52,667 nt of DNA from positions 1 through 52,667 of the IMG/VR virus record IMGVR_UViG_3300008740_000012. One strand, 5' to 3'. Shown one piece after another: positions 24,888-51,490 of this stretch. The position numbers and the translations under genes were made by a program. A model generated the notes under the pieces. The model made no database searches and was not told where the DNA came from. It worked only from the letters and a program-made list of their open reading frames with translations. Source of the stretch: a virus. Each line of letters starts with the position of its first letter. Positions within the stretch are counted from its first letter, which is position 1.

Positions 24888-25537
24888 AACTATTCATTGA
24901 GACAGTAGATGACAACAATGTTGAATTCATCACTGAAGAAAATGCCGAAGGTAAAAAGGATCATTACATCAGAGGCGTTTTCATGCAAGCCGAGCAAAAG
25001 AATCGTAACGGGCGCGTCTATCCAAAAAAGATATTAGACGAACAGGTCAACAAGTATATCAACAATTATATCTATCAAAATAGGGCATTCGGTGAACTTG
25101 GTCATCCTGACGGTCCTGTTGTTAATCTTGAGCGTGTGTCACACATGATCAAGGAACTGAGAGAAGATGGAAACAATTGGGTTGGCAAGGCAAAGATCAT
25201 GGATACTCCCTATGGTAAGATTGTAAAGAATCTTATTGATGAGGGTGCAAAGTTGGGTGTTTCCTCTCGCGGAATGGGGTCGCTCAAGAATATCAAAGGA
25301 ACCAATGTTGTACAAGATGATTTCTATCTTGCTACTGCTGCCGATATTGTTGCAGACCCGTCTGCACCAGAGGCATTTGTTGAAGGCGTCATGGAAGGAA
25401 AAGAATGGGTTTGGGAAAATGGAATAATTAAGGAACGTGAAATTGAAATATATAGAAATGAAATAACAAAAGCAAAAAGGAAGAATTTGGAAGAAACAAA
25501 ACTAGCATTGTTCAAATCCTTTATGTCAAAATTATAG
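24884..25537 (+). CDS. 21: Prohead maturation protease gp21
   Basis: A 217-residue serine protease of the T4 gp21 type. Visible are the N-R-N-G-R-V-Y-P motif, catalytic His in F-G-E-L-G-H-P, and catalytic Ser in L-G-V-S-S-R-G-M-G. It degrades the scaffold and trims gp23 and other head proteins after short (I/L)xE sites. Several accessory proteins in this window carry such a site about 8-13 residues from their start. The start overlaps the preceding stop. Confidence 0.93.
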   Translation: MKLFIETVDDNNVEFITEENAEGKKDHYIRGVFMQAEQKNRNGRVYPKKILDEQVNKYINNYIYQNRAFGELGHPDGPVVNLERVSHMIKELREDGNNWVGKAKIMDTPYGKIVKNLIDEGAKLGVSSRGMGSLKNIKGTNVVQDDFYLATAADIVADPSAPEAFVEGVMEGKEWVWENGIIKEREIEIYRNEITKAKRKNLEETKLALFKSFMSKL

Positions 25538-39100: not shown

Positions 39101-39652
39101 ATGGAGCCTCCTAATGATATGCACATATATGACAACCGCATAGATTCTCAGAGAATCTCAAAGATTTTCCATGAAGTCGCAAGGCTTCCCTATTACTATG
39201 GGGAACAGGACAATCCCTGGACGGCACCCACCGGAATGGTTTCAAATATACATGACCTTTCTTCTTCTTTTGTTTTCAAGACACTCAATGACTTCTATAT
39301 GGAAAACAAAAAAGACGAATGGTTTTGCGAATTGGAACGTGCCTATGTGAACATCTTTGCCCCAGGGGAGATGCCCTTCTACCATACAGATGCAGACTTT
39401 CCTGATGGTTGCACCACTCTGATGTACTATGCGAATCCTGAGTGGATATATGACCACGGAGGAGAAACAAAGTTTATTGACCTCAAAGATGATTCAAAGA
39501 TTATTTCGGTGGCACCCATCCCTGGAAGAATTGTCATATTCAATGGAAACCAAGAACATACTGCCACATCATTCAGAAGCCATCATAGATTCTCGGTGGT
39601 ACTGAAGTACGGAACAGAAGAAGAAAATCAACAACGACGTTCTGTATTATAA
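39101..39652 (+). CDS. 2OG-Fe(II) dioxygenase (prolyl-4-hydroxylase type)
   Basis: A 183-residue protein with the complete 2OG-Fe(II) motif: H95-T-D97 (F-Y-H-T-D-A-D), distal H153 (N-Q-E-H-T-A) and R163 (S-H-H-R-F-S) for 2-oxoglutarate. T-L-M-Y-Y-A-N-P-E-W and G-G-E-T-K-F lie between. Such enzymes hydroxylate proteins, nucleobases or small molecules and are common in marine T4-like phages. The ATG at 39101 has no clear ribosome-binding site; an ATG at 39119 with GGAG 12 bases upstream is an alternative. A diverged copy of the local 20-bp repeat lies inside the gene at 39145-39164. Confidence 0.88.
   Translation: MEPPNDMHIYDNRIDSQRISKIFHEVARLPYYYGEQDNPWTAPTGMVSNIHDLSSSFVFKTLNDFYMENKKDEWFCELERAYVNIFAPGEMPFYHTDADFPDGCTTLMYYANPEWIYDHGGETKFIDLKDDSKIISVAPIPGRIVIFNGNQEHTATSFRSHHRFSVVLKYGTEEENQQRRSVL
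39145..39164 (+). repeat. Diverged copy of the 20-bp repeat inside the oxygenase gene
   Basis: TTCTCAGAGAATCTCAAAGA matches the repeat consensus except at two of the last five bases. It shows the element also occurs in coding sequence. Confidence 0.5.
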
Positions 39653-39655
39653 ATA
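39648..39655 (+). promoter_or_regulatory. Late promoter TATAAATA before the 39715 gene
   Basis: An exact TATAAATA overlaps the stop of the oxygenase gene and lies 59 bases upstream of the next start, with GTT/ATT repeats in between. Confidence 0.7.
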
Positions 39656-39714: not shown

Positions 39715-40731
39715 ATGTCGGAAACAGAAAATCATCATCTATCCATGAACAGCTTCTATCAACACAGTCTTGAAGAAGACGCAGCATGGACAAAGAGTGC
39801 ATCCCAGCATATCTTTACAATGGATGTTCATCTTCCAATGAGTACATCCATGTACAAAAGAATCTTTGAAAAGAAAAAGCCGCCACGTATGACCGTCTTT
39901 CATGTGACCAATCCACAGTATCTTGATGATATGATTAAACTGCAAGGAAAGAAGAAATCAATCTCGGCACTGACTCATGCCCACAAAGATATTATTTCGG
40001 GTGGCATCAACGTAAAGGGTGGATTGGTATTTCAACTGGAAGCAGATATTTTGATTTCTTCGCCACATGACATCATGTCCCGCCCTGATAAAACAGGAAG
40101 GAGATGGCTGGAATTGTTTTATCTGTCTTCCATCAATAACAGCTTGGCAAATGACATGGCCATAGATGGAAGAAAATTAATCAATGGATTGGCCGAGAAG
40201 TATTTGGGTCACAAGGTTCCCATTAATTCTACGTTCAAAGTCTGGACCGAGATGGATCCAAGAAACGAAAAGTCGCCCATTGCACCCCATCATAAATTCA
40301 GCAGGCGAGACAAGAACATGGCAAAGGGCCACAAGCAGATTCAACTTCTGACAAGAAAACTGTTGCATGGTATGGTGAAAGACTACATTGATGCAATGGA
40401 AAAACTTATGAAAAAATACGAAAAACCACTTGCAGAAACTCTATGGAAACATGCTGCCAGCCAATCCAAGTATACAAACACAAATTCTTGGGATGAGTAT
40501 GTCGTAAATAGATTTCAAATTCAGAAAATTCTGATTGATAGAGCAACCATCAAATCGCGATTTGGTGGAAGAGATATGGACGACGATGAACGCACAGAAC
40601 ATTTTGCGATTTTGCTTGCCAAACTCATAAATAAAAACCTTGAATATGAAATCTTTGACAATGCATCACAGGTGGCAGTCGAAATCGCAAAAATAAGTCA
40701 TCGTCATGCACAACAAGATCAAAAACAATGA
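39715..40731 (+). CDS. Hypothetical protein, possibly ADP-ribosyltransferase-like
   Basis: A 338-residue soluble protein. The segment V-F-H-V-T-N, then K-S-I-S-A-L-T and G-G-L-V-F-Q-L-E is compatible with the His, Ser/Thr and beta-strand pattern of ADP-ribosyltransferase-like folds. It is followed by S-R-P-D-K-T-G-R-R-W. No complete catalytic triad could be confirmed. If translation began at the ATG at 39745, the N-terminus (M-N-S-F-Y-Q-H-S-L-E-E) would resemble the capsid-targeting-like leaders of other late genes here. It overlaps the next gene by 4 bases (ATGA). Confidence 0.45.
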   Translation: MSETENHHLSMNSFYQHSLEEDAAWTKSASQHIFTMDVHLPMSTSMYKRIFEKKKPPRMTVFHVTNPQYLDDMIKLQGKKKSISALTHAHKDIISGGINVKGGLVFQLEADILISSPHDIMSRPDKTGRRWLELFYLSSINNSLANDMAIDGRKLINGLAEKYLGHKVPINSTFKVWTEMDPRNEKSPIAPHHKFSRRDKNMAKGHKQIQLLTRKLLHGMVKDYIDAMEKLMKKYEKPLAETLWKHAASQSKYTNTNSWDEYVVNRFQIQKILIDRATIKSRFGGRDMDDDERTEHFAILLAKLINKNLEYEIFDNASQVAVEIAKISHRHAQQDQKQ

Positions 40732-41339
40732 AATCCTTTACACAATACCACAACAATCTGAGTGAACAAAAGAGACTCATGAAACCTCTCTTGAAGTTCA
40801 CAAAGAAACACATCAAGTCTCGGGATTTGATTACGTTGAGCAGTTTTCCTGAAGTGCAGACTCCTCTCAAGAAACACAGGCAACCCGGAAAGAAAGATGG
40901 ATTCATGCTAAAGCCTGAAGGAATCTGGTTTGGTATTGGAGACTCATGGATTAATTGGCTGGAGTCCGAGATGCCGGATTGGGCACAACCATCCATCATG
41001 AAGATTGAAGTCAATTTTTCACGGATGTTGAACATCCGAAAAGATTCAGATTTGGATGTATTCACAGAGAAGTATCAGTACATGGACAAAAAGTATGGAA
41101 TGTGGATGGCCGACTGGAGAAAGGTTGCCGAGGATTATGACGGAATCATTCATTGGAGATGGCCATCAGCGCGGCCCGGAGGGAGGTCAGCCGGAACCCA
41201 TGCCACAAGAGAGAACCCACGACAAATCTGGTACGGATGGGATGTACGCTCTGGATGTATCTGGAACCCGGCAGGCATCAAGAAGATGTCAGTCTTTGGA
41301 AGATATGACGAAGACAAGAAAGAATATGTCAAGATATAA
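40728..41339 (+). CDS. Hypothetical protein with capsid-targeting-like N-terminus, possibly ART-like
   Basis: A 203-residue protein. It begins M-K-S-F-T-Q-Y-H-N-N-L-S-E, matching a leader shared by several late genes in this window and resembling the T4 internal-protein leader. The body has K-P-E-G-I-W-F-G-I-G-D-S-W-I-N-W, E-D-Y-D-G-I and W-Y-G-W-D-V-R-S-G-C-I-W-N. This pattern recurs in marine phage proteins; an ADP-ribosyltransferase-type fold is my tentative guess. T4 packages and injects an ADP-ribosyltransferase (Alt), which makes the idea worth testing. It overlaps the lipoprotein gene by 14 bases. Confidence 0.45.
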   Translation: MKSFTQYHNNLSEQKRLMKPLLKFTKKHIKSRDLITLSSFPEVQTPLKKHRQPGKKDGFMLKPEGIWFGIGDSWINWLESEMPDWAQPSIMKIEVNFSRMLNIRKDSDLDVFTEKYQYMDKKYGMWMADWRKVAEDYDGIIHWRWPSARPGGRSAGTHATRENPRQIWYGWDVRSGCIWNPAGIKKMSVFGRYDEDKKEYVKI

Positions 41340-41520
41340 TTATTATATCATCCTATTATTATTATCTTTTTTTGGTTGTGGTATTGGTGGTAGTGCCAAC
41401 AACAATGAATGTCTCATATGGCAAAATATCGAGGCATGTGTTCCTCATTATTGTTCCTGTGAAGAAGTCATTACTTCAGGAGCAGCATGTGGGTGTGTGA
41501 AGGAGGATGCACATAAATAA
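41326..41520 (+). CDS. Small Cys-rich lipoprotein
   Basis: A 64-residue product starting inside the previous gene. A hydrophobic segment (about 6-17) ends F-F-G-C18, a lipobox-like site. The mature part has Cys at 18, 29, 38, 43, 45, 55 and 57 and the motif E-C-L-I-W-Q-N. A second small lipoprotein at 43612 has G-C-L-V-W-Q-I. A role in spanin-type lysis or superinfection exclusion is possible but unproven. Confidence 0.55.
   Translation: MSRYNYYIILLLLSFFGCGIGGSANNNECLIWQNIEACVPHYCSCEEVITSGAACGCVKEDAHK
41512..41519 (+). promoter_or_regulatory. Possible late promoter variant CATAAATA
   Basis: One base off TATAAATA, overlapping the lipoprotein stop, 42 bases before the next gene. The same variant occurs at 24662 in a comparable position. 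Confidence 0.4.
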
Positions 41521-41561
41521 TAGGTAGTACAATAACAACACACACACACATACACACATAT

Positions 41562-41900
41562 ATGGAAAACGACGACAACAATAACAACGACAACAATTCT
41601 GATAAATGGCCCTGGAGTATCACAGACAGAGAGTTTGGTGCATTGGAACAGGAAGTAAAAGAAATTCGTCATGTATACAGAAATCTTAAAATGATTGTAA
41701 ATGAATCAGGGATTTCCCATATTGACAAAGACGACATCAATGCATTTCGCGACGGCCTGACCAACCTTGAAGAAAGACTCAAGGGAATTGATTCCTTTCA
41801 AGAAGACATTATCAAATTAAAAATCAAAGTATATACTGCATTTTCTGTTATTGGAATCCTTGCGGCAATTATTGTATGGATAGTCGAGGCAATAACATGA
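41562..41900 (+). CDS. Tail-anchored coiled-coil membrane protein
   Basis: A 112-residue protein with an Asn/Asp-rich N-terminus (1-14) encoded by AAC/GAC repeats, a helical charged middle (25-85) and a single C-terminal transmembrane helix (about 91-109). It overlaps iscA by 4 bases (ATGA). The leader contains a CA microsatellite. No family recognised; the topology would suit a membrane tether or lysis accessory. Confidence 0.55.
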   Translation: MENDDNNNNDNNSDKWPWSITDREFGALEQEVKEIRHVYRNLKMIVNESGISHIDKDDINAFRDGLTNLEERLKGIDSFQEDIIKLKIKVYTAFSVIGILAAIIVWIVEAIT

Positions 41901-42229
41901 TTGACATGACACAAAAAGCAGCAGAGATGATCAAATACCAATTAGGGAATTCGTCTGTCTATTCAAATGACTCGGCACTACGAATCAAGATTATTGGGGG
42001 TGGGTGTTCAGGTCTTCGATATAATATGTCTTTTGATAAAAATATAAATAAAGATAGTGATTATATAAAAGAAGAATACGGAGTAAGGCTTGTCATTGAT
42101 GAAAAAAGCGCGCTCTACATGGTAGGTTCACAATTGGATTTTGTGGACGAATTAATGGAAACAGGATTCAAAATCAATAATCCTAATGCCAAGAATTCTT
42201 GTGGTTGTGGCGAATCTTTTGGGGTGTAG
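41897..42229 (+). CDS. A-type iron-sulfur cluster carrier (IscA/ErpA/HesB family)
   Basis: The start at 41897 uses the ATGA overlap. The 110-residue protein has the three conserved cysteines of A-type carriers: C37 in I-G-G-G-C-S-G-L, and C102 and C104 in S-C-G-C-G-E-S-F. Their spacing matches E. coli IscA almost exactly. The segment L-D-F-V-D-E-L-M-E-T-G-F-K-I-N-N-P-N-A is also typical. It would deliver Fe-S clusters or iron to apo-proteins. It lies directly upstream of a di-iron oxidase gene and 4 kb from a phage HiPIP gene, so it may help mature phage iron proteins. Confidence 0.92.
   Translation: MIDMTQKAAEMIKYQLGNSSVYSNDSALRIKIIGGGCSGLRYNMSFDKNINKDSDYIKEEYGVRLVIDEKSALYMVGSQLDFVDELMETGFKINNPNAKNSCGCGESFGV
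42043..42050 (+). promoter_or_regulatory. TATAAATA inside iscA
   Basis: An exact late-promoter octamer about 205 bases upstream of the di-iron oxidase start. Being inside an AT-rich gene it may be chance. Confidence 0.25.
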
Positions 42230-42255
42230 AAAAAGAAGAAAGAAAAAAAAGCACA

Positions 42256-43347
42256 ATGAAATTTCATCAAAAAAATCCTATACCGCTCCCCGAAGTAGGA
42301 GCCACTTCTTCAATCAAATCAACAATAGAAACTGTCTTCGATTGGGAATACGATCTCAAGAGAAAGAATCTTTTAAACCTCTACGAAAAAGGAAAAGCAC
42401 TCAACTGGAATGCAACTGAGCTTCCCTGGGAAACTGATGTAGACATAGAAAAGATTCAAAAGACCCGAATGAAAAATGGCGCAGGAGACATGATGCGTGC
42501 CACGCTGATTCCTCCAAAGCCGGTAGATGATGAATTTTTAATGACATTGGGAATTGAACAAAATGCATTCATGTTGAGTCAGTTTCTTCATGGAGAACAA
42601 GGGGCACTCGTTGCAACAGCAAAACTAGTTCAGGCCTGCCCGGATGAAGAAGCAAAGTTCTATGCCGCAAGTCAGGTATTGGACGAAGCTCGCCATGTAG
42701 AAGTTTATCATCGTTATCTCACAGAAAAATTGGGCACAAGCTATCCCATTCTTCCTTCACTTGGCAATCTGCTTGATGATGTCATTGAAGCAAAGGATTG
42801 GGATATGTCATTTCTGGGAATGCAAATCATGGTAGAAGGGATTGCCCTTGGCGCATTTGCATTCGTGAAGTTGTCCAATCCAGATGAACCTCTCATTCTT
42901 GAAATCACAGAAAGAGTCATGCAGGATGAGTCTCGTCATGTTGCCTTTGGTGTACTGACATTAGAAGATATGTACAAAGATGGGTTATCAGAAAATGAAA
43001 TGCGTGAGCGAGAAGATTTTGTTCTTGAGGCATCTCATGTTTTGAAAGAAAGACTCAACAGCGACCAAGTTCTTGAACGACTCGGAATCAATACACCAGA
43101 TTGGCTTGAATGGCAAAGGAACTCTCCTTATCTTCGTGGGATTACAAGCATGGTATTTTCAAAAGTTGTTCCTAATCTAAAGCGTATTGGATTATTGACG
43201 CCTCGGGTTCGCAAGGCATATGAGCAAATGAATCTGATTCATTTTGAACACGGAAAGGATTCATTAGAAGATGTGACTGTAGAGATTCCTGATGAATTAG
43301 TGAAATCGTTGACAACAATGATAGGAGAAAATACACATGCCAAGTAA
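42256..43347 (+). CDS. Ferritin-like di-iron oxidase/oxygenase (R2/AurF-like)
   Basis: The ATG at 42256 was chosen; an upstream in-frame ATG at 42199 lies inside iscA. The 363-residue protein has a full carboxylate-bridged di-iron set in a four-helix bundle: E114 (H-G-E-Q-G-A-L), E144 and H147 (L-D-E-A-R-H), E194 (V-E-G-I-A-L-G), E225 and H228 (Q-D-E-S-R-H). Spacing of about 30 between E and ExxH is classic for R2-like, AurF-like and acyl-desaturase proteins. It is not class I NrdB: length and surroundings differ and no NrdA is near. Substrate unknown; its electrons could come from the HiPIP. Confidence 0.85.
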   Translation: MKFHQKNPIPLPEVGATSSIKSTIETVFDWEYDLKRKNLLNLYEKGKALNWNATELPWETDVDIEKIQKTRMKNGAGDMMRATLIPPKPVDDEFLMTLGIEQNAFMLSQFLHGEQGALVATAKLVQACPDEEAKFYAASQVLDEARHVEVYHRYLTEKLGTSYPILPSLGNLLDDVIEAKDWDMSFLGMQIMVEGIALGAFAFVKLSNPDEPLILEITERVMQDESRHVAFGVLTLEDMYKDGLSENEMREREDFVLEASHVLKERLNSDQVLERLGINTPDWLEWQRNSPYLRGITSMVFSKVVPNLKRIGLLTPRVRKAYEQMNLIHFEHGKDSLEDVTVEIPDELVKSLTTMIGENTHAK

Positions 43348-43615
43348 CAATACATTTTTCACATCAAGACAATGGGATATCAAAAAACAATTGATTGACC
43401 AAACAGGGCACGCTGTCTATGCGATATTAGTTCTATTGCCTGTTCTCTTGATTCCAAACATAATTTTAGGAACAACAACATCAGCATTGGCATGTGGAAT
43501 AATTCGTGAATGGGAACAGTGGAGAAAAGCAGAAAGTCTTCATCTATTTGACAGAATCTTGGATGTTTGTTTCTTCGGTGTTGGTGGAATTATTATAGGA
43601 AGCATATTATCGTGA
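43337..43615 (+). CDS. Two-helix inner-membrane protein
   Basis: A 92-residue protein starting inside the end of the di-iron gene. After a polar N-terminus with D-I-K-K-Q-L-I-D-Q-T-G-H it has a long hydrophobic region (about 25-55), the charged segment R-E-W-E-Q-W-R-K, and a second helix (about 72-91). Size and topology resemble small phage membrane proteins such as class II holins, but no endolysin lies next to it. The stop overlaps the next start (GTGA). Confidence 0.5.
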   Translation: MPSNNTFFTSRQWDIKKQLIDQTGHAVYAILVLLPVLLIPNIILGTTTSALACGIIREWEQWRKAESLHLFDRILDVCFFGVGGIIIGSILS

Positions 43616-43788
43616 AGATAACAATTTTAACAATAATAATGTTTCTCTCTTTTGGGGCATGTACAACACCCACAACAGAAAACCCAACAAATCCAGAAGC
43701 AGATGATCCAATCATAGAAGGAGAAGAAGTGGTTGCTCCGATTGGGTGTCTTGTTTGGCAAATAAATGATCCAAATGCCGACTGCTAA
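43612..43788 (+). CDS. Small lipoprotein, GTG start
   Basis: A 58-residue protein starting at GTG in a GTGA overlap. The hydrophobic N-terminus ends L-S-F-G-A-C17, a plausible lipobox. A Pro/Asn/Glu-rich linker follows, and the C-terminus holds G-C-L-V-W-Q-I and a final Cys. The C-L-(V/I)-W-Q motif is shared with the lipoprotein at 41326. Candidate outer-membrane lipoprotein of an Rz1-type spanin or an exclusion factor. Confidence 0.55.
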   Translation: MKITILTIIMFLSFGACTTPTTENPTNPEADDPIIEGEEVVAPIGCLVWQINDPNADC

Positions 43789-44176
43789 TACAAATTACAT
43801 AGACGACACAATAGAAGTATTCAATAGAGTACATGCTGGGTTTAAGTATGTCACAGACGAGGTACAATATCCAGAGTCAATAGATGATTGGAGAATTCCC
43901 AAGGATTTTGATCGGGTCACAGGAGACTGTGATGATTTTGCCATTGCATGTAGAACTCTTCTCAAAGAGAAAGGTCACAAGCCTCGGCTTCTTTATTGTA
44001 GAGCCGAAACTGGAGAAGGGCATCTTATTTGCATATTAGGAAAAATGGCACTTGATAACAGAATGTTCAAGGCAGTGGAAATTACAGAATTAACTAGACG
44101 AGGTTACATTCTTATTTCAGTGAGTGGAACTGAGCCTGGAGAATATTGGCGAAGTGTAGAGGATGTTGTTATTTAA
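43766..44176 (+). CDS. Transglutaminase-like cysteine protease (BTLCP/LapG-like)
   Basis: A 136-residue protein with F-K-Y-V-T-D, D-D-W-R-I-P, catalytic C55 in T-G-D-C-D-D-F-A-I-A, H86 in G-E-G-H-L-I and probably D97. This matches bacterial transglutaminase-like cysteine proteinases, a group that includes LapG, which releases biofilm adhesins. It has no signal peptide, unlike LapG, so it would act in the cytoplasm or after lysis. It starts inside the lipoprotein gene (ATG at 43775 is an alternative). Its end overlaps the convergent minus-strand gene by 8 bases. Confidence 0.75.
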   Translation: MIQMPTANTNYIDDTIEVFNRVHAGFKYVTDEVQYPESIDDWRIPKDFDRVTGDCDDFAIACRTLLKEKGHKPRLLYCRAETGEGHLICILGKMALDNRMFKAVEITELTRRGYILISVSGTEPGEYWRSVEDVVI

Positions 44177-44759
44177 ATCCCATCTTCTTTAGTTTGGCAA
44201 TCGTGATACTACTGGCAGTATGATGTATTCCATGACCACCCTTTGCAGTAAATTCTCTAATATTCTTGTCATAATCGTCAATCAATAGAGTGGGTTTTTC
44301 ATTTATTACAGCATAGTCTTGTTTTTGTTCACGAAAGACTAGATGCACCTTTGCAGGTGCTACTTTTAGATTCTTTGCGACCCAAATCTCTTTTCCTTTT
44401 CTACTGAATCCTTTAGGGTCGCTTTTTGGTTTCTTATATGCAGACAGTATATGCACATCATACTTCTTGACAAAGTTCCATAACTTCTTTCCGTCTTTCA
44501 TCCAAGGAAGCTCTGCCCAAAACTTGGCACCTTCTGCGGCAACCATTCTGTGCAGTTCGTTGTTGGACACTTCTTGTGGAATCTGACCCTTTTTATTTGC
44601 CATTGACTTTCCGCGAGCCTTCCATGCTTGCATATCCAGCCCACCAGTCAATTTGGACACTCCTGCTTGTAAGTCTACCAGAACAGAGTCCAAGTCTAGC
44701 ATGATGACAGGTCGTTCTTCTGGAGCAACCTCATATAATATTTGATTATATGTTTTCAT
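44169..44759 (-). CDS. HAD-family 5'-nucleotidase-like protein with capsid-targeting-like N-terminus
   Basis: The ATG at 44759 was chosen because M-K-T-Y-N-Q-I-L-Y-E matches the leader of neighbouring genes; an upstream frame extends into the kinase gene. The 196-residue product has the HAD nucleophile motif I-M-L-D-L-D-S-V-L, H-I-L-S-A-Y (motif II) and L-L-I-D-D-Y (acidic motif). With D-Y-A-V and W-A-E-L-P-W this resembles 5'(3')-deoxyribonucleotidases. It may clear nucleotides. It is the last gene of a four-gene operon. Confidence 0.72.
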   Translation of the reverse strand: MKTYNQILYEVAPEERPVIMLDLDSVLVDLQAGVSKLTGGLDMQAWKARGKSMANKKGQIPQEVSNNELHRMVAAEGAKFWAELPWMKDGKKLWNFVKKYDVHILSAYKKPKSDPKGFSRKGKEIWVAKNLKVAPAKVHLVFREQKQDYAVINEKPTLLIDDYDKNIREFTAKGGHGIHHTASSITIAKLKKMGFK

Positions 44760-44763
44760 TATA

Positions 44764-45468
44764 TTAATTCTTATGTGGTTTGACGGTCTTGACTCCGCGC
44801 TGTTTCTTTTCTTTTTCGATCCACTGCTTTGCAATCTTATTTTGGTGGTCTTTCTTGACCCACTTAGAAACAAAACGATATCCTCTTACGGATGATTTGT
44901 TTAAATCTATTCCTTCGCTATTGTCAATAATTAATAAATCATTTTTAAAAAGAGATTGGAATTTTCCAATGTTGTTCTGGACTCCATTCCACATCTTTTT
45001 GACTTGTTCGTCTGGAAGTCTTCGCGAACGCATTCGATTTCTTTTCAGTGCAGTCTCTACATCTGTATTAACAAAGAGCATCATGGTATCATATCCAAGA
45101 TAATTAAGTGCAACTTTTTGTTTTCTTATCTTTTCATAGTCCTTTCCAGTTCCATCAATAATGAGTCCAAGTCTTCCGTTTAATGCAATCTCTTGTTTTT
45201 TTGCAGTAAGAGCTTTTGCTGATCCGCGAATTGATTGACCCTTTTCAGAAAAAATATCTTCTGGTGTTGTTTTCAAACCCGCTTTGGAGAGTGTGTATTC
45301 AAAGATATCATCAGAGTTAATTAGTTTCAACCCAAGAGCAGTGAGTGCCGTCTTTCCTGCGATGAAAGACTTCCCTGAACCGGGACCACCAGCCATGAAG
45401 ACTGCCTTAAAAATTGCAGGGTCGTTGATGCCTTCATTTATGTTATGATAATCTTTAAACGATTTCAT
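44764..45468 (-). CDS. P-loop kinase, zeta-toxin-like
   Basis: A 234-residue protein beginning M-K-S-F-K-D-Y-H-N-I-N-E/G, a capsid-targeting-like leader with an I-N-E/G cleavage site. Walker A is G-G-P-G-S-G-K-S (about 27-34); further motifs are I-N-S-D-D at the substrate site, L-I-I-D-G-T-G and R-N-R-M-R-S-R-R (Arg-rich lid). This fits the zeta-toxin/polynucleotide-kinase group of P-loop kinases. The substrate is unknown (UDP-sugar, nucleotide or RNA end). It overlaps the preceding stop by one base (TAATG). Confidence 0.72.
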   Translation of the reverse strand: MKSFKDYHNINEGINDPAIFKAVFMAGGPGSGKSFIAGKTALTALGLKLINSDDIFEYTLSKAGLKTTPEDIFSEKGQSIRGSAKALTAKKQEIALNGRLGLIIDGTGKDYEKIRKQKVALNYLGYDTMMLFVNTDVETALKRNRMRSRRLPDEQVKKMWNGVQNNIGKFQSLFKNDLLIIDNSEGIDLNKSSVRGYRFVSKWVKKDHQNKIAKQWIEKEKKQRGVKTVKPHKN

Positions 45469-45683
45469 TATATTCCTCCAACTTCTTTGCGGGCAGCAGA
45501 ATCAACATTTGTCTGACTCTTGGCCCATTTTTGTGCCTGAGCTTTGCTCTTGAATCCATCGGAAACCGGCATCCATTTATTACTTCCTACATGACCCATT
45601 ACATACCACAGTTTATTATGTGGGTTCTTTTCGACAATATACCTTGAGTCTGCTTCTGTTATATGTTGTCTAAATGATTTCAT
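45468..45683 (-). CDS. Small DUF2188-like protein with capsid-targeting-like N-terminus
   Basis: A 71-residue protein starting M-K-S-F-R-Q-H-I-T-E/A, then Y-I-V-E-K-N, L-W-Y-V-M-G-H, G-F-K-S-K-A-Q-A-Q-K-W-A. The strand-helix layout resembles DUF2188 proteins. The I-T-E/A site near residue 10 fits the gp21 cleavage rule closely. It starts at an ATGA overlap with the 50-residue gene upstream. Confidence 0.62.
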   Translation of the reverse strand: MKSFRQHITEADSRYIVEKNPHNKLWYVMGHVGSNKWMPVSDGFKSKAQAQKWAKSQTNVDSAARKEVGGI

Positions 45684-45832
45684 TTTTTACCCTTTTCTAT
45701 TTCCTCAAGTCTATCTGCAATGATATGGGCTGCTCGTTCAAATCCTTCAATGATTGCATTGGCTTGTCGAACCCCAAGCGTATCAATTGATTTTACGATT
45801 GCGTCAACAATTCCTGAATCAAAGAAACTCAT
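45680..45832 (-). CDS. 50-residue helical protein, first gene of minus-strand late operon
   Basis: This short frame begins with ATG at 45832, six bases after AGGAG on the minus strand, and ends TGA overlapping the next start (ATGA). The product (M-S-F-F-D-S-G-I-V-D-A-I-V ... Lys-rich end) is an amphipathic helical protein without cysteines. The ribosome-binding site, the coupling and the late promoter immediately upstream make it a credible gene. Function unknown. Confidence 0.65.
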   Translation of the reverse strand: MSFFDSGIVDAIVKSIDTLGVRQANAIIEGFERAAHIIADRLEEIEKGKK

Positions 45833-45842
45833 AATTGTCTCC

Positions 45843-45869
45843 TATTTATATGAAGTATTTATATAAATA
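45843..45869. promoter_or_regulatory. Divergent overlapping late promoters
   Basis: The palindrome TATTTATATAAATA (45856-45869) contains TATAAATA on both strands: plus at 45862-45869 (22 bases before the SNase gene) and minus at 45863-45856 (23 bases before the 50-residue gene). A second minus-strand TATAAATA lies at 45850-45843. The arrangement is suited to bidirectional late transcription by gp55 polymerase. Confidence 0.75.
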
Positions 45870-45891
45870 ATATTATTGGAGGAATATCAAT

Positions 45892-46236
45892 ATGCATGAA
45901 TATAATGCCGATGTAATAAGCGTATATGATGGAGACACAATTCGCGTTGATATAGACCTTGGATTTGGTGTTTGGTTGAGAAATCAGTCCATTCGTTTAC
46001 TCGGAATTGATGCTCCAGAAGTTCGTGGAGAAGAAAAGGATGCCGGAATTGTGGCAAGAGATCGACTGATTGAATTACTCGAACATAATAATAATAAATG
46101 TATAATTAAAACATATAAATCTGTCAAAAGAGGAAAGTATGGAAGAATTCTTGTTGAGGTGTTTACTGACCCAGATTCCAAATCTTTGAACAAGGTCTTG
46201 ATTGATGAGGGTCTTGCAGACAGATATATGGAATGA
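45892..46236 (+). CDS. Staphylococcal-nuclease-like thermonuclease
   Basis: A 114-residue SNase-domain protein: V-Y-D-G-D-T-I-R-V-D-I-D-L-G-F (calcium-binding Asp residues), I-R-L-L-G-I-D-A-P-E-V-R-G (catalytic Arg, Asp, Glu), and K-Y-G-R-I-L-V-E-V with the second Arg. It has no signal peptide. It is expressed from the divergent late promoter. Possible roles are host DNA degradation or DNA trimming. Confidence 0.9.
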   Translation: MHEYNADVISVYDGDTIRVDIDLGFGVWLRNQSIRLLGIDAPEVRGEEKDAGIVARDRLIELLEHNNNKCIIKTYKSVKRGKYGRILVEVFTDPDSKSLNKVLIDEGLADRYME

Positions 46237-46244
46237 TTAATTTT

Positions 46245-46252
46245 GCTAAATA
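46245..46252 (+). promoter_or_regulatory. Possible late promoter variant GCTAAATA
   Basis: Two mismatches from TATAAATA, 39 bases before the next gene. A small hairpin (GGTTGT/ACAACC, 46260-46277) follows in the leader. Confidence 0.25.
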
Positions 46253-46291
46253 ATAAAGAGGTTGTATAGTCACAACCAAGGAGAAAAGGTC

Positions 46292-46798
46292 ATGAAGTTT
46301 TCAGGCGCAAAAGTAAATGCATTTTATACGGCAGACCAACAAATGCGCGAGTCTATTCGACAGGATGTTCTTGCAGAAAGATATGTTGATCTTCAGCAGG
46401 AGATGAAAAATCTTGAGAACTTGTTGAATATTTCAGAAGAAGAGAGGAATGAAGATCTTTTTGAAATTAATGACATTCTCTTTAATATCATTGAAATGTT
46501 GGTCCCCGAATTAACAGAAGAAATGACCGAAAATCTTGATGAACAAGAAGATAGTTCTTCTTTTGATGCAAGACAAACTGCCCGAAAAGATCGTATTAAA
46601 AAACGAGAAAATGATGCAATTGAGGTTTCAAAGAAAAAGGAAGAATTGGTTCGGGCAAAGAGTGACATTTCAGTGGCAAGACTTGGTTTAAGAGCAGCAG
46701 GAACACCACAAGCAAAAATAGCAGCAGGTGAAAAGCTCCGTAAGGCTCGTGGAAAATTAGCAGTTGCAGGAATTAAAGTAGATGCAGCAAAGGATTAA
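46292..46798 (+). CDS. Charged helical hypothetical protein
   Basis: The ATG at 46292 lies 10 bases after AAGGAG; an upstream TTG frame would run through the hairpin leader. The 168-residue product has an acidic N-terminal half and a Lys/Arg/Ala-rich C-terminal half, both helical. No family recognised. It resembles core- or scaffold-type phage proteins in composition only. Confidence 0.5.
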   Translation: MKFSGAKVNAFYTADQQMRESIRQDVLAERYVDLQQEMKNLENLLNISEEERNEDLFEINDILFNIIEMLVPELTEEMTENLDEQEDSSSFDARQTARKDRIKKRENDAIEVSKKKEELVRAKSDISVARLGLRAAGTPQAKIAAGEKLRKARGKLAVAGIKVDAAKD

Positions 46799-46806
46799 TA
46801 AAAAAA

Positions 46807-47112
46807 ATGGTAATATCATTTAAAAAGTATTTGAACGAAAATTATGAGTTCATGCTACCAGATTATCCCACACAAGTTCCTCCAAAGGATGATCCAAGAG
46901 GTGATTGGATTACTGGTGATTCGCCAAAAGGTATCGACTTTCCTATTGATGGAAATGTAAAAGGAATAGAAAATACAAAAAACATTTTAAACAAAGCATC
47001 TTCTGTAATTGCCAAGGAAAGAGAATTGCAGAAAAAAGCAAAACCAGAAATTTTTCCTCTTGCACATAAAACATATAAAGTAATGGTGTCAAATAAAAAA
47101 ATAAAAGGGTGA
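46807..47112 (+). CDS. Hypothetical protein with capsid-targeting-like N-terminus
   Basis: A 101-residue protein starting M-V-I-S-F-K-K-Y-L-N-E/N; the S-F-K-K-Y-L-N-E core resembles the leader of other late accessory genes here. The body is Pro/Asp-rich, then basic. It starts without a strong ribosome-binding site. Function unknown. Confidence 0.5.
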   Translation: MVISFKKYLNENYEFMLPDYPTQVPPKDDPRGDWITGDSPKGIDFPIDGNVKGIENTKNILNKASSVIAKERELQKKAKPEIFPLAHKTYKVMVSNKKIKG

Positions 47113-47118
47113 TAAATA
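47111..47118 (+). promoter_or_regulatory. Possible late promoter variant GATAAATA
   Basis: One mismatch from TATAAATA, 106 bases upstream of the 47225 structural gene. It overlaps the start of a 43-residue frame. Confidence 0.35.
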
Positions 47119-47249
47119 TGAAATATATAATTGGCGGTTGTATTATATCTTTAATGGTTTTAACTTGTTCCACACCAGCCAAAGCTTATAATGATGATAA
47201 CAAGATATCTTTTAAGGAGATGAAATGGCAAAAAATATCGGAGATGTAG
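47118..47249 (+). CDS. Possible 43-residue secreted peptide
   Basis: The frame from the ATG at 47118 gives a basic start, a hydrophobic core (4-16, with L-M-V-L-T-C) and an A-K-A-type signal peptidase site, then a short polar tail. It overlaps the next gene by 25 bases. There is no clear ribosome-binding site, so it may instead be the leader of the next gene. Confidence 0.35.
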   Translation: MKYIIGGCIISLMVLTCSTPAKAYNDDNKISFKEMKWQKISEM

Positions 47250-47593
47250 ATGCAACTTATCCTCCAAAGCATGATTGGACTACAACACCAAATGATGCAT
47301 TCAATGAGCGAAGAGAGGAGCTAGACAGTCCTGCTTCATCGGCTTTTCCAATTACTCCAAGTCAAGGATTACTTCCGACAACTGTTCGTAGTTTATATAT
47401 TGGCGGGTCTGGAAATGTTTTCTGTCGCATGGCAGCAGGAAACACAATGTATCAACAAGCCAATGCGTTTTTCTATAATGTTGGTGCAGGAACAGTTCTT
47501 CCTATTCGTGTGGATGGGGTTTTTGATACGAATAGTACAGATGGTGATATTTCCCAGAACACCACTGCAACATTCATTGTAGGACTCTTTTAA
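47225..47593 (+). CDS. Spike-base-type virion protein
   Basis: A 122-residue beta-rich protein with D-S-P-A-S-S-A-F-P-I-T-P-S, T-T-V-R-S-L-Y-I-G-G-S-G-N-V and G-T-V-L-P-I-R-V. I associate this pattern with spike base proteins of gene transfer agents and related tail proteins. AAGGAG lies upstream. It opens the second structural block, ahead of a glycine-rich adhesin. Confidence 0.6.
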   Translation: MAKNIGDVDATYPPKHDWTTTPNDAFNERREELDSPASSAFPITPSQGLLPTTVRSLYIGGSGNVFCRMAAGNTMYQQANAFFYNVGAGTVLPIRVDGVFDTNSTDGDISQNTTATFIVGLF

Positions 47594-47612
47594 CACCTAA
47601 AGGAGTTCACAT

Positions 47613-48311
47613 ATGAAACTTTCATCAGGTTTGGGTCTTCCTTCTGTTGCACAATCATTTAATGCAAAGGGCGTGATGGGTCCATATATATGGGCACATA
47701 ATGCAGTTGGTGAAACGATAACTCTCGGTGGAGATAACCCACTCAAAAACCCGTCAAATATCACTCTAGGAAACGTTTCAACCGGAGTGTCCTTAAATCA
47801 GGGAAGTAGTGATGCAGTTTTTCGATTTTGGGAAGCAAATTCTTCAAAAACTTCTGGGCTATTAAATGAAGTTGATACCAACCGAGGAAGATATCTGCAC
47901 ATTGTCATAAGTTTTACTGGGCCAGGAACAGCACAGGGGACTGTTAAAAAAAATAATCATTTATGGTGGTATGCTGGATCAGGCGGGACTGATGATTACG
48001 GTCCATTGGATTCTTTTAATGGCGGGCTTGGTCATCAACCAGTTGCTTCAACGTCAAACGAAGTACATATGAATGGCTCAACAATTGTTCGTGGGCATAC
48101 TACTATTTTGGTTTATGATATGCAGGGTTCAACATTGGTGCCGGGAGCATCAACTACTGAAACATGGGGATCTAATGCCGACCCAATTATGCTCGAATTA
48201 TCTTTTAATAATGATTCTGCTGTAACCAGTATTTATCATGGAATGGTTCTTTCTGATAGAGTTCTTACACATATTCCTCTTCCAATAAGAACTGACATTG
48301 CTTTGGGATAA
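47613..48311 (+). CDS. Structural hypothetical protein
   Basis: A 232-residue protein preceded by AAAGGAG. It is rich in Ser, Thr, Gly and Asn with alternating beta-like hydrophobics, N-K-N-H-L-W-W-Y, and an N-terminus M-K-L-S-S-G-L-G-L-P-S. No membrane or enzymatic motif. Its place between a spike-base protein and an adhesin suggests a virion role, for example a lectin-like or collar/fibre part. Confidence 0.55.
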   Translation: MKLSSGLGLPSVAQSFNAKGVMGPYIWAHNAVGETITLGGDNPLKNPSNITLGNVSTGVSLNQGSSDAVFRFWEANSSKTSGLLNEVDTNRGRYLHIVISFTGPGTAQGTVKKNNHLWWYAGSGGTDDYGPLDSFNGGLGHQPVASTSNEVHMNGSTIVRGHTTILVYDMQGSTLVPGASTTETWGSNADPIMLELSFNNDSAVTSIYHGMVLSDRVLTHIPLPIRTDIALG

Positions 48312-48317
48312 TTTTTT

Positions 48318-49514
48318 ATGTCTCTTTCGTTAATTCCTGTGACAACAAGAAGACCTAGAACTCCCTGGTACAGAACTGAAACACGAAAAAAAATAGTTCC
48401 TACTCCAACAAGATTTTCAATTACGCTTGATGTTCGTGACCATTCACTTTTATCTTCATCTGAAAATGGAACTATTGGAAGTCTTAATAATGATGGAAAA
48501 TATTATATAATTGATTTTCCTTCAAGTTGGGTTGACCATGAATCTGATCAATCTTCGGTTGGGCCTTTGGGTGATCCATTTTCATCTTTTAGAACTTCAA
48601 CATCTCCAGTACAAAATACAACAACTGGTTTATATTTTATGCCAGTCATTACGGCAAATTTAGACATTACAATTAATATTCCAAAAGGAGTAGTTCTTGG
48701 TTCTAATGTGACATTCTTTACTCTCAGAAATCCATGTTTAAACTTTGGGTTTTCAGGAAATTATTCTGGGGGAGATATAGTTGACCTTGATAATAAACCT
48801 TGGTTTACAACTTTTTCAAAAACTGCCTGTGCTGGTGCAATTATAACCATTAATAATACTGGAAATTGTCATGGTGGCGGCGGGGCTGGCGGAACGGGTT
48901 CTGGTGGTTTTGATGTGAAAACTGGATGGTTTGCCGGTGGCGGTGGGGGTGGTGGCGCAGGATTGACGGCTGGCGGCGGCGGCACGGTTTATAATAATGG
49001 TAATCCTGGGAGTGCTGGTTCTTTTCCACATACCGGAGGTTCTGGTGGTGCTCAAAAAGTAGGCATGACATCGGGTTCACAAGGCTCTACTGTACAACCT
49101 ACTGCTGGGCATCAAGGTGGTCCCGTATTTGTAAATTGGAATCCTGCTCGGTATAGAGAAGATTCAACTGTATTTGCAGATACTCCAGTGTTTATTATTA
49201 ATAATAATAATGATGGAGACAATACTAGCGGCTATCTTTATGGTGGCGGCGGTGGCGGCGGCGGCGGTGGTGGTGCCGGAGGAACAGGTGGAGGAAAAAC
49301 TTCAGGAACTGCGGTTGGAGGCCAAGCAGGGTCTAGTGGAGGTGCCGGAAGTGGAGGTGCTTCTGGAATATCTGGAGCATCAGGGGGTGTTGGTGGAAAA
49401 ATATTTGATAATGAACGTTTTGGTATTTCAAATGGAGGAACTTTTACCTTAAACAATTCTCATGATACAGGAAACAATCAAGTTACTGTTCAAGGAAGTG
49501 ATGGAACTTGGTAA
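48318..49514 (+). CDS. Glycine-rich adhesin-type protein, stand-alone paralogue of the large fibre C-terminus
   Basis: A 398-residue protein. Residues about 30-180 carry the motifs L-D-V-R-D, G-K-Y-Y-I-I-D-F-P, I-N-I-P-K-G-V, N-P-C, then I-T-I-N-N-T-G. These occur in the same order in the 1,247-residue fibre. Residues about 190-380 form long Gly runs separated by short polar segments, as in glycine-rich receptor-binding tips of T4-like phages (S16 gp38 type). It probably caps a fibre. The poly-Gly codons are mixed GGT/GGC, making the DNA locally G-rich and repeat-prone. Confidence 0.68.
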   Translation: MSLSLIPVTTRRPRTPWYRTETRKKIVPTPTRFSITLDVRDHSLLSSSENGTIGSLNNDGKYYIIDFPSSWVDHESDQSSVGPLGDPFSSFRTSTSPVQNTTTGLYFMPVITANLDITINIPKGVVLGSNVTFFTLRNPCLNFGFSGNYSGGDIVDLDNKPWFTTFSKTACAGAIITINNTGNCHGGGGAGGTGSGGFDVKTGWFAGGGGGGGAGLTAGGGGTVYNNGNPGSAGSFPHTGGSGGAQKVGMTSGSQGSTVQPTAGHQGGPVFVNWNPARYREDSTVFADTPVFIINNNNDGDNTSGYLYGGGGGGGGGGGAGGTGGGKTSGTAVGGQAGSSGGAGSGGASGISGASGGVGGKIFDNERFGISNGGTFTLNNSHDTGNNQVTVQGSDGTW

Positions 49515-49529
49515 ATAAAAGGAAATTAT

Positions 49530-49781
49530 ATGAGTATTTCAATTAAAATACACGATACTGATTTAGTAGCTCAAACCTGTGTTGTGACTATTAAAGATAA
49601 TGATGTGACTGTTATTGATAAAAAAAATATTGGATTACAGCTTGATGAGAATGGAGCTTTTGATACAAACTATATAATACAAGATGCCAAGTTAAGGATA
49701 AAAGATATCAGACTTGCAAATACTGAAAATGATGTTGTAGTGACAGGACATCCTTCACCAGTTTTGTTTACAGGAGAATAG
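49530..49781 (+). CDS. Small adhesin-associated protein, paralogue of the 10378 gene
   Basis: An 83-residue protein with T-I-K-D-N-D and D-K-K-N-I-G-L-Q-L-D-E-N-G, the same order and spacing as in the 74-residue protein at 10378. It follows the glycine-rich adhesin by 15 bases, mirroring the first cluster, and has a short extra C-terminus. A conserved partner, assembly factor or small virion subunit of the adhesin is likely. Confidence 0.68.
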   Translation: MSISIKIHDTDLVAQTCVVTIKDNDVTVIDKKNIGLQLDENGAFDTNYIIQDAKLRIKDIRLANTENDVVVTGHPSPVLFTGE

Positions 49782-49789
49782 AAAATATT

Positions 49790-50248
49790 ATGTCAAGTGT
49801 CTATGTGACAAAAGACGAATATAGTCTGTACCTGACGAATATGTTAGAAGCAGGAGAACAAATTCAATATGATTGGTCATTGTCTAAATCATATACTATG
49901 GTTACTGCAAAGGGAAAGTCAAATCTTATTTTATCTTCTTCTAATATGCCTCATGTCTGTGTGGCAATTGGTCTGCATCGAATTCCTCCAGGCGAAAGTT
50001 TAACTGTGTCTGCAACAGAACAGACTATTTTTATTTGTCCATTTCTTTTGGACGATGATGTGTCAATGAATGAATTGTTTCCAACCACATCTACTTTAAC
50101 TTCATTGCGTGCTAGTTCTTCCTATTTAAATCCAACAACAGATAATGGTGTAGAAGACCATGTGGAATTGGATTATGGTTCATCGGGAAATACAGTATTT
50201 ACTTTGTCTGATTTAGATGCAGCAGTTCTTGGAGGGCTTTCATCATGA
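49790..50248 (+). CDS. Adhesin-associated beta protein, paralogue of the 50762 gene
   Basis: A 152-residue protein. N-M-L-E-A-G-E-Q-I-Q-Y-D-W-S and I-F-I-C-P-F-L-L-D-D-D-V-S-M parallel N-M-V-D-P-G-E-T-I-N-Y-D-W-S and Y-C-I-S-L-F-R-V-D-D-D-N-V-M in the 147-residue protein at 50762. The turn-rich G-x-x-x-x-Y-D-W pattern is cupin-like. The metal-ligand histidines of enzymatic cupins are not obvious, so it is more likely structural. It overlaps the next gene (ATGA). Confidence 0.55.
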   Translation: MSSVYVTKDEYSLYLTNMLEAGEQIQYDWSLSKSYTMVTAKGKSNLILSSSNMPHVCVAIGLHRIPPGESLTVSATEQTIFICPFLLDDDVSMNELFPTTSTLTSLRASSSYLNPTTDNGVEDHVELDYGSSGNTVFTLSDLDAAVLGGLSS

Positions 50249-50724
50249 GAAAGCTAAAAACAATTTCAACACAAGACCATTTAATTCATGTTATTGAGGT
50301 AACTTCGGGTAATACTGACCTTGCTTGTGGTTTATCTGAAAGTAAAGTGCAGCTAGATGAAATAATGACTGTTTTTTATGCAGAAGGTTCATTGAACCAT
50401 TTCACCAAAGAAAATCTTTCTGATAACTGGACACTACGAGGAAATACGAGTTCACCATTATGGGCATTTTCAAAGCCGGGGGATTGGTTTCGAGGCGCAG
50501 TATCTACAGAACCTATGGTGATGATTACATTTATTCCAAAAATAAATGATTATTCTTCACCAGAATTGAATTATTTGAATGATGTGGATGTTGAAAACAT
50601 AGACAGAGAATCTTATTTGGAACTTGGGACTGCCAATATGCAAAAACAAATGAACCCAAATACATATGAAGAACTCGATGATGTGCTCGATGATGAAGTG
50701 TCTGATGAAGTTGTTTTTGAATAA
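50245..50724 (+). CDS. Adhesin-associated protein, distant relative of the 10599 gene
   Basis: A 159-residue protein starting in an ATGA overlap. Its central F-Y-A-E-G-S-L-N, N-W, S-P-L and G-A-V-S-T can be lined up with the 177-residue protein at 10599. The C-terminus is very acidic (about 140-159), likely disordered. It sits in the duplicated adhesin module; its function is not known. Confidence 0.5.
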   Translation: MRKLKTISTQDHLIHVIEVTSGNTDLACGLSESKVQLDEIMTVFYAEGSLNHFTKENLSDNWTLRGNTSSPLWAFSKPGDWFRGAVSTEPMVMITFIPKINDYSSPELNYLNDVDVENIDRESYLELGTANMQKQMNPNTYEELDDVLDDEVSDEVVFE

Positions 50725-50735
50725 GTGTGTAATTA

Positions 50736-50743
50736 TATAAATA
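50736..50743 (+). promoter_or_regulatory. Late promoter TATAAATA before the 50762 gene
   Basis: An exact TATAAATA 12 bases after the preceding stop and 18 bases before the next start, followed by AAGAGGGAAG. Confidence 0.72.
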
Positions 50744-50761
50744 AAGAGGGAAGAAGATAAT

Positions 50762-51205
50762 ATGGCATATGCGAGATTGGTATTTAATTCACAGACCTTG
50801 GCAATCATGAATATGGTTGACCCAGGAGAAACAATCAATTATGACTGGTCAATTGACGAAGACTATTCTATTGTTCTTCTTGAAGGCTCTGTGACAGTTA
50901 ACGGTAATGTTTTGGAAGGAGTGTGCGAACACCGAGTGCAGCCAAACGAACAGTTGTCCATGACAGGAACAGGAGATACAAGGAGCTATTGTATTTCTTT
51001 GTTTCGTGTAGATGATGATAATGTAATGGATCAAATTGTTTCTGAAACAGGCAAGACACGAATGCGTACATTTGAACCAACGTGGATTGATGATGGATGG
51101 CCATCCAATCCAGATACCACATGGAAAGATGATTTTACTTCTGGAAATTATACATATACCAAGACAATTGTAGAGACACAGATTGCAAACTCAGAATGGG
51201 ATTAA
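50762..51205 (+). CDS. Beta protein, paralogue of the 49790 gene
   Basis: A 147-residue protein sharing N-M-x-x-x-G-E-x-I-x-Y-D-W-S and D-D-D-x-x-M with the protein at 49790. A Trp-rich C-terminal part (T-W-I-D-D-G-W, T-T-W-K-D-D) is unique. Single-domain cupin-like fold suspected. It opens a new late transcription unit that continues through the HNH-like gene. Confidence 0.55.
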   Translation: MAYARLVFNSQTLAIMNMVDPGETINYDWSIDEDYSIVLLEGSVTVNGNVLEGVCEHRVQPNEQLSMTGTGDTRSYCISLFRVDDDNVMDQIVSETGKTRMRTFEPTWIDDGWPSNPDTTWKDDFTSGNYTYTKTIVETQIANSEWD

Positions 51206-51211
51206 AAAGAA

Positions 51212-51490
51212 ATGAAAACATTTAAAGATTTGAGTGCAGAACTAGAAGAAAGAGATTACAAACGAGAATATGCAAATTATCATTCTCGCCCGGATCAGAT
51301 TGCCCGAAGATCTGCAAGAAATTCTGCGCGTAGAATTGTATCAAAGAAAGTAAAAGAAGAAGACCTTGAGGGGAAGGATGTTCATCATAAGGATAATGAC
51401 CCCTTGAATAATGACCACACCAACCTTTCTGTTGTAACACAGCATTACAATAGAAGAGAGCCACGGCTCAGAGAAAAGGAAGAAGACTAA
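51212..51490 (+). CDS. HNH-like protein with capsid-targeting-like N-terminus
   Basis: A 92-residue protein starting M-K-T-F-K-D-L-S-A-E-L-E-E, then a basic helical stretch rich in Arg. The C-terminal half contains K-D-V-H-H-K-D-N-D-P-L-N-N-D-H-T-N-L, the H-H ... N core of HNH-type endonucleases. Small proteins with this tail are common in marine phages. It could nick DNA; packaging in the capsid is suggested by the leader. Confidence 0.65.
   Translation: MKTFKDLSAELEERDYKREYANYHSRPDQIARRSARNSARRIVSKKVKEEDLEGKDVHHKDNDPLNNDHTNLSVVTQHYNRREPRLREKEED

What the first reader, a model, noticed from the sequence alone, without database searches (positions are those of the whole stretch)
40728..51490. 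Shared N-terminal leader suggests a set of capsid-packaged, injected proteins
Unrelated proteins at 40728 (M-K-S-F-T-Q-Y-H-N-N-L-S-E), 44759 minus (M-K-T-Y-N-Q-I-L-Y-E), 45468 minus (M-K-S-F-K-D-Y-H-N-I-N-E), 45683 minus (M-K-S-F-R-Q-H-I-T-E), 46807 (S-F-K-K-Y-L-N-E) and 51212 (M-K-T-F-K-D-L) start alike. Nearly all have (I/L)xE about 8-13 residues in. T4 internal proteins carry a similar leader (M-K-T-Y-Q-E-F-I-A-E) that targets them to the prohead and is removed by gp21, which this phage encodes. Most of these genes lie downstream of late promoters, as packaging would require.
Basis: partly seen in the sequence, partly recalled or inferred. Interest (0 to 1): 0.82.

Follow-up and report, generated by a model that had tools for sequence, protein, structure and literature searches.

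The report
Leader-tagged proteins packed in phage head
A marine T4-like phage puts a short, cuttable address tag on six unrelated proteins, several of them enzymes, and closely similar tags in related phages mark proteins already found by mass spectrometry in virus particles, so these proteins are probably packed in the head and delivered with the DNA.

Summary
Six unrelated proteins (40728+, 44759-, 45468-, 45683-, 46807+, 51212+) start alike and reach [I/L]xE within 10-13 residues. A model trained only on T4 internal proteins and mass-spectrometry-detected cyanophage virion proteins finds 5 of 62 window genes at p<0.002, against 0.12 expected.

The leader matches the T4 capsid-targeting sequence: residues 4 and 7 target, 8 and 10 are processed (PMC9026906). 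The window encodes gp21. Its major capsid protein keeps an LxE site where T4 gp23 has FLTE. T4-type late promoters precede the leader operons.

Three independent tests agree:
1. A leader model blind to S-CREM2 ranked six virion-detected proteins first among 216 S-CREM2 ORFs (P=1.2e-4; one is probably a chance hit).
2. The HNH protein equals leaderless podovirus HNH proteins plus exactly MKTFKDLSAELEE.
3. In another gp21 phage the orthologous nucleotidase carries that phage's own, different shared leader.

Head targeting and cleavage are well supported; injection and function are inferred. Cargo includes a polynucleotide-kinase-like enzyme, a nucleotidase-like phosphatase and an HNH protein.

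The parts
40728..41339 (+). Leader protein 1, 203 aa, unknown function (distant match to phrog_8582 and mycobacteriophage proteins); leader MKSFTQYHNNLSE = 40728-40766
   Evidence: p=0.0005
44169..44759 (-). 5'(3')-deoxyribonucleotidase-like HAD phosphatase, 196 aa; leader MKTYNQILYE = 44730-44759
   Evidence: phrog_2643 E=1.3e-19; p=0.0005
44764..45468 (-). P-loop kinase (Zeta_toxin/AAA_33; fold closest to polynucleotide kinase), 234 aa; leader MKSFKDYHNINE = 45433-45468
   Evidence: p=0.0012
45468..45683 (-). 71-aa orphan; leader MKSFRQHITE = 45654-45683, the best fit to the T4 rule
   Evidence: p=0.0001
46807..47112 (+). 101-aa orphan; leader MVISFKKYLNE = 46807-46839, shifted by one residue
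   Evidence: fits the motif, not significant alone
51212..51490 (+). HNH protein, 92 aa; leader MKTFKDLSAELEE = 51212-51250, absent from podovirus homologues
   Evidence: p=0.0011
39745..40731 (+). Tentative: internal ATG of the 39715 gene gives MNSFYQHSLEE
   Evidence: no Shine-Dalgarno seen, no homologues
39648..39655 (+). Late promoter TATAAATA before 39715/40728
45843..45850 (-). Late promoter TATAAATA before the minus operon 45832-44169
45856..45863 (-). Second late promoter TATAAATA before the minus operon
45862..45869 (+). Divergent late promoter TATAAATA before 45892-47112
50736..50743 (+). Late promoter TATAAATA before 50762/51212
24884..25537 (+). gp21-type prohead protease (Peptidase_S77)
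   Evidence: E=6.5e-40
26963..28339 (+). Major capsid protein gp23 with LLGE|S at the T4 cleavage column

Best explanation
The shared N-terminus is a capsid-targeting propeptide of the T4 internal-protein kind. Inferred steps: cargo proteins made late carry the leader; an aromatic residue at about position 4 and a hydrophobic residue or His at about position 7 dock them on the scaffold core of the prohead; gp21 then cuts after [I/L]xE and frees the mature protein inside the head before DNA is packaged; the cargo leaves with the DNA at infection. Cargo in this phage: a polynucleotide-kinase-like P-loop kinase, an NT5C-like phosphatase, an HNH protein and three uncharacterised proteins. Shown here: the leader and its excess over chance, gp21, the conserved LxE site in the capsid protein, late promoters, and the link between leader and virion detection in related phages. 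Inferred: packaging, cleavage and injection in this phage. Estimates: about 0.8 for head targeting with cleavage, about 0.65 for delivery into the host.
For: T4 CTS determinants at residues 4, 7, 8 and 10 (PMC9026906) are the conserved positions here; window-blind model 5 of 62 genes versus 0.12 expected; S-CREM2-blind model ranks virion-detected proteins 1-6 of 216 (P=1.2e-4; top four; proteome table); T4-GC190 with the leader is in S-SM1 virions and its homologue is labelled a virion protein in S-SCSM1; HNH natural experiment; leader goes with the phage and not with the enzyme, contig G001; gp21; conserved [IL]xE in gp23; late promoters; disordered leader in the kinase model.
Against: No proteomics for this phage. 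The unsupervised test is not significant in the window. Some relatives show few or no leaders (S-PM2 none, HTVC008M one). S-SCSM1 ORF30 has a strong leader but is not labelled a virion protein. The S-CREM2 authors allow that such enzymes could be CsCl carry-over. The invariant E-G of the kinase family also occurs inside a longer Atu_ph07 protein.
Confidence: 0.8

Rival explanations
1. The leaders are chance or composition: genes of an A+T-rich phage often begin MK[ST]F, and [IL]xE is a short motif.
For: The motif is short and was noticed after the fact; the unsupervised test in the window is not significant; MK starts are common in A+T-rich genomes.
Against: 5 of 62 versus 0.12 expected with a model that never saw the window; rate far above ten other genomes; podovirus controls are empty; link with virion detection.
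Confidence: 0.07
2. The proteins are head-targeted but serve assembly, or are bystanders, and are not delivered: an internal scaffold-like role with no action in the host.
For: [quoted passage not shown] no injection evidence here.
Against: Enzyme domains (kinase, phosphatase, HNH) have no evident use in a scaffold; in T4 internal proteins with this kind of leader are injected and act on host defence (PMC12373910).
Confidence: 0.15
3. The leader is another kind of sorting or regulatory signal (a translation-start element or membrane/pole targeting) unrelated to the head.
For: The leaders sit at start codons of late genes; some virion-detected proteins of S-CREM2 and S-SCSM1 have no leader.
Against: Codons differ while residues are kept; the conserved end follows the gp21 rule; the HNH comparison puts the boundary at the predicted cut; the leaders are polar and short, unlike membrane signals.
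Confidence: 0.05

Closest known systems
T4 internal proteins IPI, IPII, IPIII with capsid-targeting sequence (CTS)
   Same: 10-19-residue leader with aromatic residue 4, hydrophobic residue near 7, end [IL]xE; gp21; late promoter type; unrelated mature parts
   Different: T4 IPs are small, several block GmrSD restriction enzymes (PMC12373910); here cargo includes enzymes, and three leaders have 2-3 extra residues before the cut
T4 Alt, head-packaged ADP-ribosyltransferase
   Same: An enzyme packaged in the head and processed by gp21 (PMC9026906)
   Different: No Alt homologue was identified in the window; different enzymes; Alt is also cut at its C-terminus
Virion-associated enzymes of cyanophages (NMNAT/cytidylyltransferase, SAM hydrolase, APH-like kinase; S-CREM2, S-SCSM1, S-SM1)
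   Same: Same leader type on enzymes in gp21-bearing Kyanoviridae
   Different: Different cargo; the leader was not reported in the papers read
Ejection proteins of phiKZ-like giant phages (SPN3US, 201phi2-1)
   Same: Head protease homologous to gp21 cutting after a short x-x-E motif; cargo ejected with DNA
   Different: Propeptides are often longer than 100 residues and the phiKZ motif is S/A-x-E

Membership tests
T4-type CTS-bearing internal head proteins | N-terminal leader of 10-19 residues, aromatic at 4, hydrophobic at 7 | tested here: met
   Model trained without the window, 5 of 62 genes at p<0.002; 46807 is shifted by one residue
T4-type CTS-bearing internal head proteins | Leader ends in the gp21 cleavage motif [L/I]xE | tested here: met
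   All six, at residues 10-13; [IL]xE also kept in gp23 at the T4 column
T4-type CTS-bearing internal head proteins | gp21-type prohead protease in the same genome | tested here: met
   PF03420, E=6.5e-40
T4-type CTS-bearing internal head proteins | Late expression | tested here: met
   TATAAATA upstream of the leader operons and of capsid and tail genes; expression itself not measured
T4-type CTS-bearing internal head proteins | Unrelated mature parts | tested here: met
   Different families or none
T4-type CTS-bearing internal head proteins | Present in the virion | not testable with these tools
   For this phage no data; in S-CREM2 leader proteins are virion-detected
T4-type CTS-bearing internal head proteins | Leader removed in the mature head | not testable with these tools
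   Needs N-terminal mass spectrometry; the HNH boundary fits
T4-type CTS-bearing internal head proteins | Injected with DNA | not testable with these tools
   Inferred from T4 (PMC12373910)
T4 Pnkp-type end-healing pair | P-loop 5'-kinase domain plus HAD phosphatase | tested here: inconclusive
   Kinase fold closest to polynucleotide kinase but adenylate kinase and zeta toxin score about as well; the phosphatase is nearer NT5C; two adjacent genes, no fusion

The most novel reading that the evidence does not exclude
Marine T4-like phages use a lineage-specific, interchangeable head-entry tag to deliver a pre-made kit of nucleic-acid enzymes (here kinase, phosphatase and HNH protein; in other lineages a CCA-adding/poly(A)-polymerase-like enzyme, SAM hydrolase and NMNAT-like enzymes), so that damage to DNA or tRNA by host defence can be countered before any phage gene is expressed.
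Probability: 0.2. Interest if true: 0.85.

Novelty: new variant of a known kind. Interest (0 to 1): 0.64.

Why it matters
Enzymes turn up repeatedly in cyanophage virion proteomes, and the authors could not tell carried cargo from contamination (PMC10665884, PMC9602691). The leader gives a sequence rule that bears on this and can be run on any gp21-bearing genome, cultured or not. It also provides a list of candidate first-minute effectors of abundant marine phages, and natural address tags to compare with the T4 one. Among the open-licence papers searched here only one review holds both 'capsid targeting' and 'cyanophage', and the passages read there do not report this.

Tried and rejected
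1. Structure of leader protein 1 (40728) from a single sequence failed (pLDDT 38), and too few relatives were found for an alignment; an ADP-ribosyltransferase-like fold was suspected by eye and could not be tested. 2. Homologues of the 39715 gene: none in phages or viral contigs. 3. Unsupervised gapless clustering in the window: not significant. 4. Reading the invariant E-G of the kinase family as proof of a cut: weakened by Atu_ph07, where EVTEGVND lies inside a longer protein. 5. A near-identical phage in the annotated collection: none by megablast. 6. The 39745 alternative start as a further leader: kept only as tentative for lack of a ribosome-binding site. 7. A 10-mer profile hit at the predicted scaffold start (MSTEQQIIEE): dropped, no aromatic at position 4. 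8. In S-CREM2, the hit at 83440 (baseplate protein, internal GTG): counted in the ranking but judged a chance hit.

Full report
WHAT THE WINDOW IS. The window is a 52,667-base virus record of a T4-like phage. It has no close relative in the annotated phage collection by megablast. Its kinase and nucleotidase are closest to Methylophilales phage Melnitz and Pelagibacter phage HTVC008M, both Kyanoviridae, and its capsid protein is 48-51% identical to those of Kyanoviridae. It encodes a gp21-type prohead protease (PF03420, E=6.5e-40), followed by a predicted scaffold and the major capsid protein.

OBSERVATION. The six N-termini are as described. The common elements are M-K-[ST]-[FY], a hydrophobic residue or His three positions later, and [I/L]xE ending at residues 10-13. 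M-K-[ST]-[FY] starts 5 of 62 genes here, against 12 of 1977 in ten comparison genomes, and follows none of 269 internal methionines in the window. A relaxed motif with shuffled N-termini as null gives 7 seen, 0.73 expected. A gap-tolerant score trained only on T4 internal proteins and on virion-detected cyanophage proteins (with one Syn9 and one P-SSM2 homologue of a detected protein) gives five window genes at p<0.002, 0.12 expected. 46807 fits by eye but is not significant alone. Two weaknesses: gene calls were made with a simple longest-ORF method, and the unsupervised gapless test is not significant for the window.

MATCH TO THE T4 RULE. In T4 IPIII the first ten residues suffice for head entry; residues 4 and 7 matter for targeting, 8 and 10 for processing, and gp21 cuts after L/I-x-E (PMC9026906). 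MKTYNQILYE and MKSFRQHITE fit without gaps. MKSFKDYHNINE, MKSFTQYHNNLSE and MKTFKDLSAELEE have 2-3 extra residues before the cut, fewer than the nine in T4 IPI (MKTFKEFTSTTTPVSTITE). The window's gp23 carries LLGE at the alignment column of T4 gp23 FLTE. All seven other Kyanoviridae examined have [IL]xE there; contig G001 lacks a clear site.

BLIND TEST ON PUBLISHED PROTEOMES. A gapless profile built without S-CREM2 was run on S-CREM2, whose virion proteome is published (PMC10665884). The four best of 216 ORFs are all virion-detected. With GTG and TTG starts allowed the best six are all detected (50 of 216 ORFs detected; P=1.2e-4). The cut-off at six was set by the score gap after seeing the list, and one of the six (83440) is a baseplate protein hit at an internal GTG, most likely by chance. 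The other five are the SAM hydrolase, the APH-like kinase, the cytidylyltransferase, gp13 and gp136; the first two and gp13 lie within about 9 kb. The cytidylyltransferase/NMNAT family is a virion protein in S-SM1 (T4-GC190, PMC3037559) and S-SCSM1 (PMC9602691; record note), and bears MKSFSQFLTE, MKKFSAFLSE or MKSFLQFLKE in P-SSM2, Syn9 and S-SCSM1. In T4 the four best hits are gp61.1 and three proteins that I identify from their leaders as IPIII, IPII and IPI. The podovirus controls P-SSP7 and HTVC019P give nothing. The rule is not complete: several virion-detected proteins have no leader, and S-SCSM1 ORF30 has one but is not labelled a virion protein.

LEADER AS A MODULE. Free-standing HNH proteins of podoviruses (HTVC011P, HTVC204P, HTVC025P, P-RSP2; 47-51% identity) start M(A/T)RDYRxEYxNY or similar; the window protein reads MKTFKDLSAELEE-RDYKREYANY. 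The extra part is exactly the leader and ends at the predicted cut. The nucleotidase has the window-type leader here, none in Atu_ph07 (MNTLFCDLDG) and Phosso (MPQIFCDFDG), and MLKLSKLIKE in contig G001. In G001 other proteins share that different leader, among them a CCA-adding/poly(A)-polymerase-like enzyme (MIKLKNLLQE) and three small proteins related to each other (MIKLKKLIKE). The G001 cluster has 8 neighbours, against a maximum of 2 in 100 shuffles, and G001 encodes gp21. So the leader goes with the phage and not with the enzyme. In the kinase family residues 2-11 diverge while E12-G13 is invariant in 14 sequences; as Atu_ph07 keeps E-G inside a longer protein, this is suggestive only.

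EXPRESSION. TATAAATA occurs 12 times (2.6 expected). Sites lie upstream of sheath, tube, scaffold and capsid genes, and at 39648+, 45843-, 45856-, 45862+ and 50736+ upstream of the leader operons. The minus-strand operon 45832-44169 holds three leader genes in a row.

CARGO. The kinase model (pLDDT 72, 11-sequence alignment) has a disordered leader. Its best fold matches are bacterial polynucleotide kinase, with adenylate kinase and zeta toxin close behind. The adjacent gene is an NT5C-like HAD phosphatase. A kinase next to a phosphatase recalls T4 Pnkp, but substrate and membership are open. Leader protein 1 and two small orphans could not be assigned.

MECHANISM AND CONFIDENCE. Best reading: late synthesis, docking of the leader on the prohead core, gp21 cleavage after [IL]xE, release into the head, exit with DNA. 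Head targeting and cleavage about 0.8; delivery into the host about 0.65, by analogy with T4 IP1-3, which block type IV restriction enzymes (PMC12373910). A nucleic-acid repair role is speculation at about 0.2.

NOVELTY. The tag principle is known from T4, and its use by T4-like phages for various proteins has been suggested (PMC9026906). What is new in the material searched here is its presence on enzymes of uncultured and cultured marine T4-like phages, its power to predict a published virion proteome, and the lineage-specific leader in G001. Most subscription papers and all preprints were outside the search.

Noticed in passing
T4 NC_000866 18966-19130 (gp61.1; locus L122): T4 gp61.1, annotated as hypothetical, begins MKTFKEFIKE, a near-perfect capsid-targeting leader scoring with the known internal proteins; it may be a further packaged T4 protein.
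   Followed up: partly
G001 (168,383-base contig; loci L119, L132-L140): A different shared leader M(I)KLKKLIKE on a nucleotidase, a CCA-adding/poly(A)-polymerase-like enzyme and several small proteins.
   Followed up: yes
S-SCSM1 MK867354 91626-91835 (ORF93; locus L124): A small virion protein whose C-terminus reads KRTFKEFLEYIE, a leader-like motif at the other end; possibly a C-terminal tag.
   Followed up: no
S-CREM2 OR473000 7704-10313 (gp12; locus L092): The virion-detected Cas9-like nuclease has RFASFMAE, leader-like, about 18 residues inside the annotated start.
   Followed up: no
window 45843-45869: Three TATAAATA late promoters within 27 bases, two on the minus strand and one on the plus strand, form a divergent late promoter.
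   Followed up: partly
window 43766-44176: A BTLCP transglutaminase-like cysteine peptidase (PF06035, E=3e-10) next to the leader operon, without a leader.
   Followed up: no
window 45892-46236: A staphylococcal-nuclease-like protein (PF00565, E=3.4e-9) behind the plus-strand late promoter, without a leader.
   Followed up: no
Melnitz (L019), HTVC008M (L018), Syn9 (L089): DUF6267 proteins with a K-W/Y-DGAP stretch, as in nucleotidyltransferases/ligases by eye, sit in the same gene cluster as leader-bearing enzymes.
   Followed up: no
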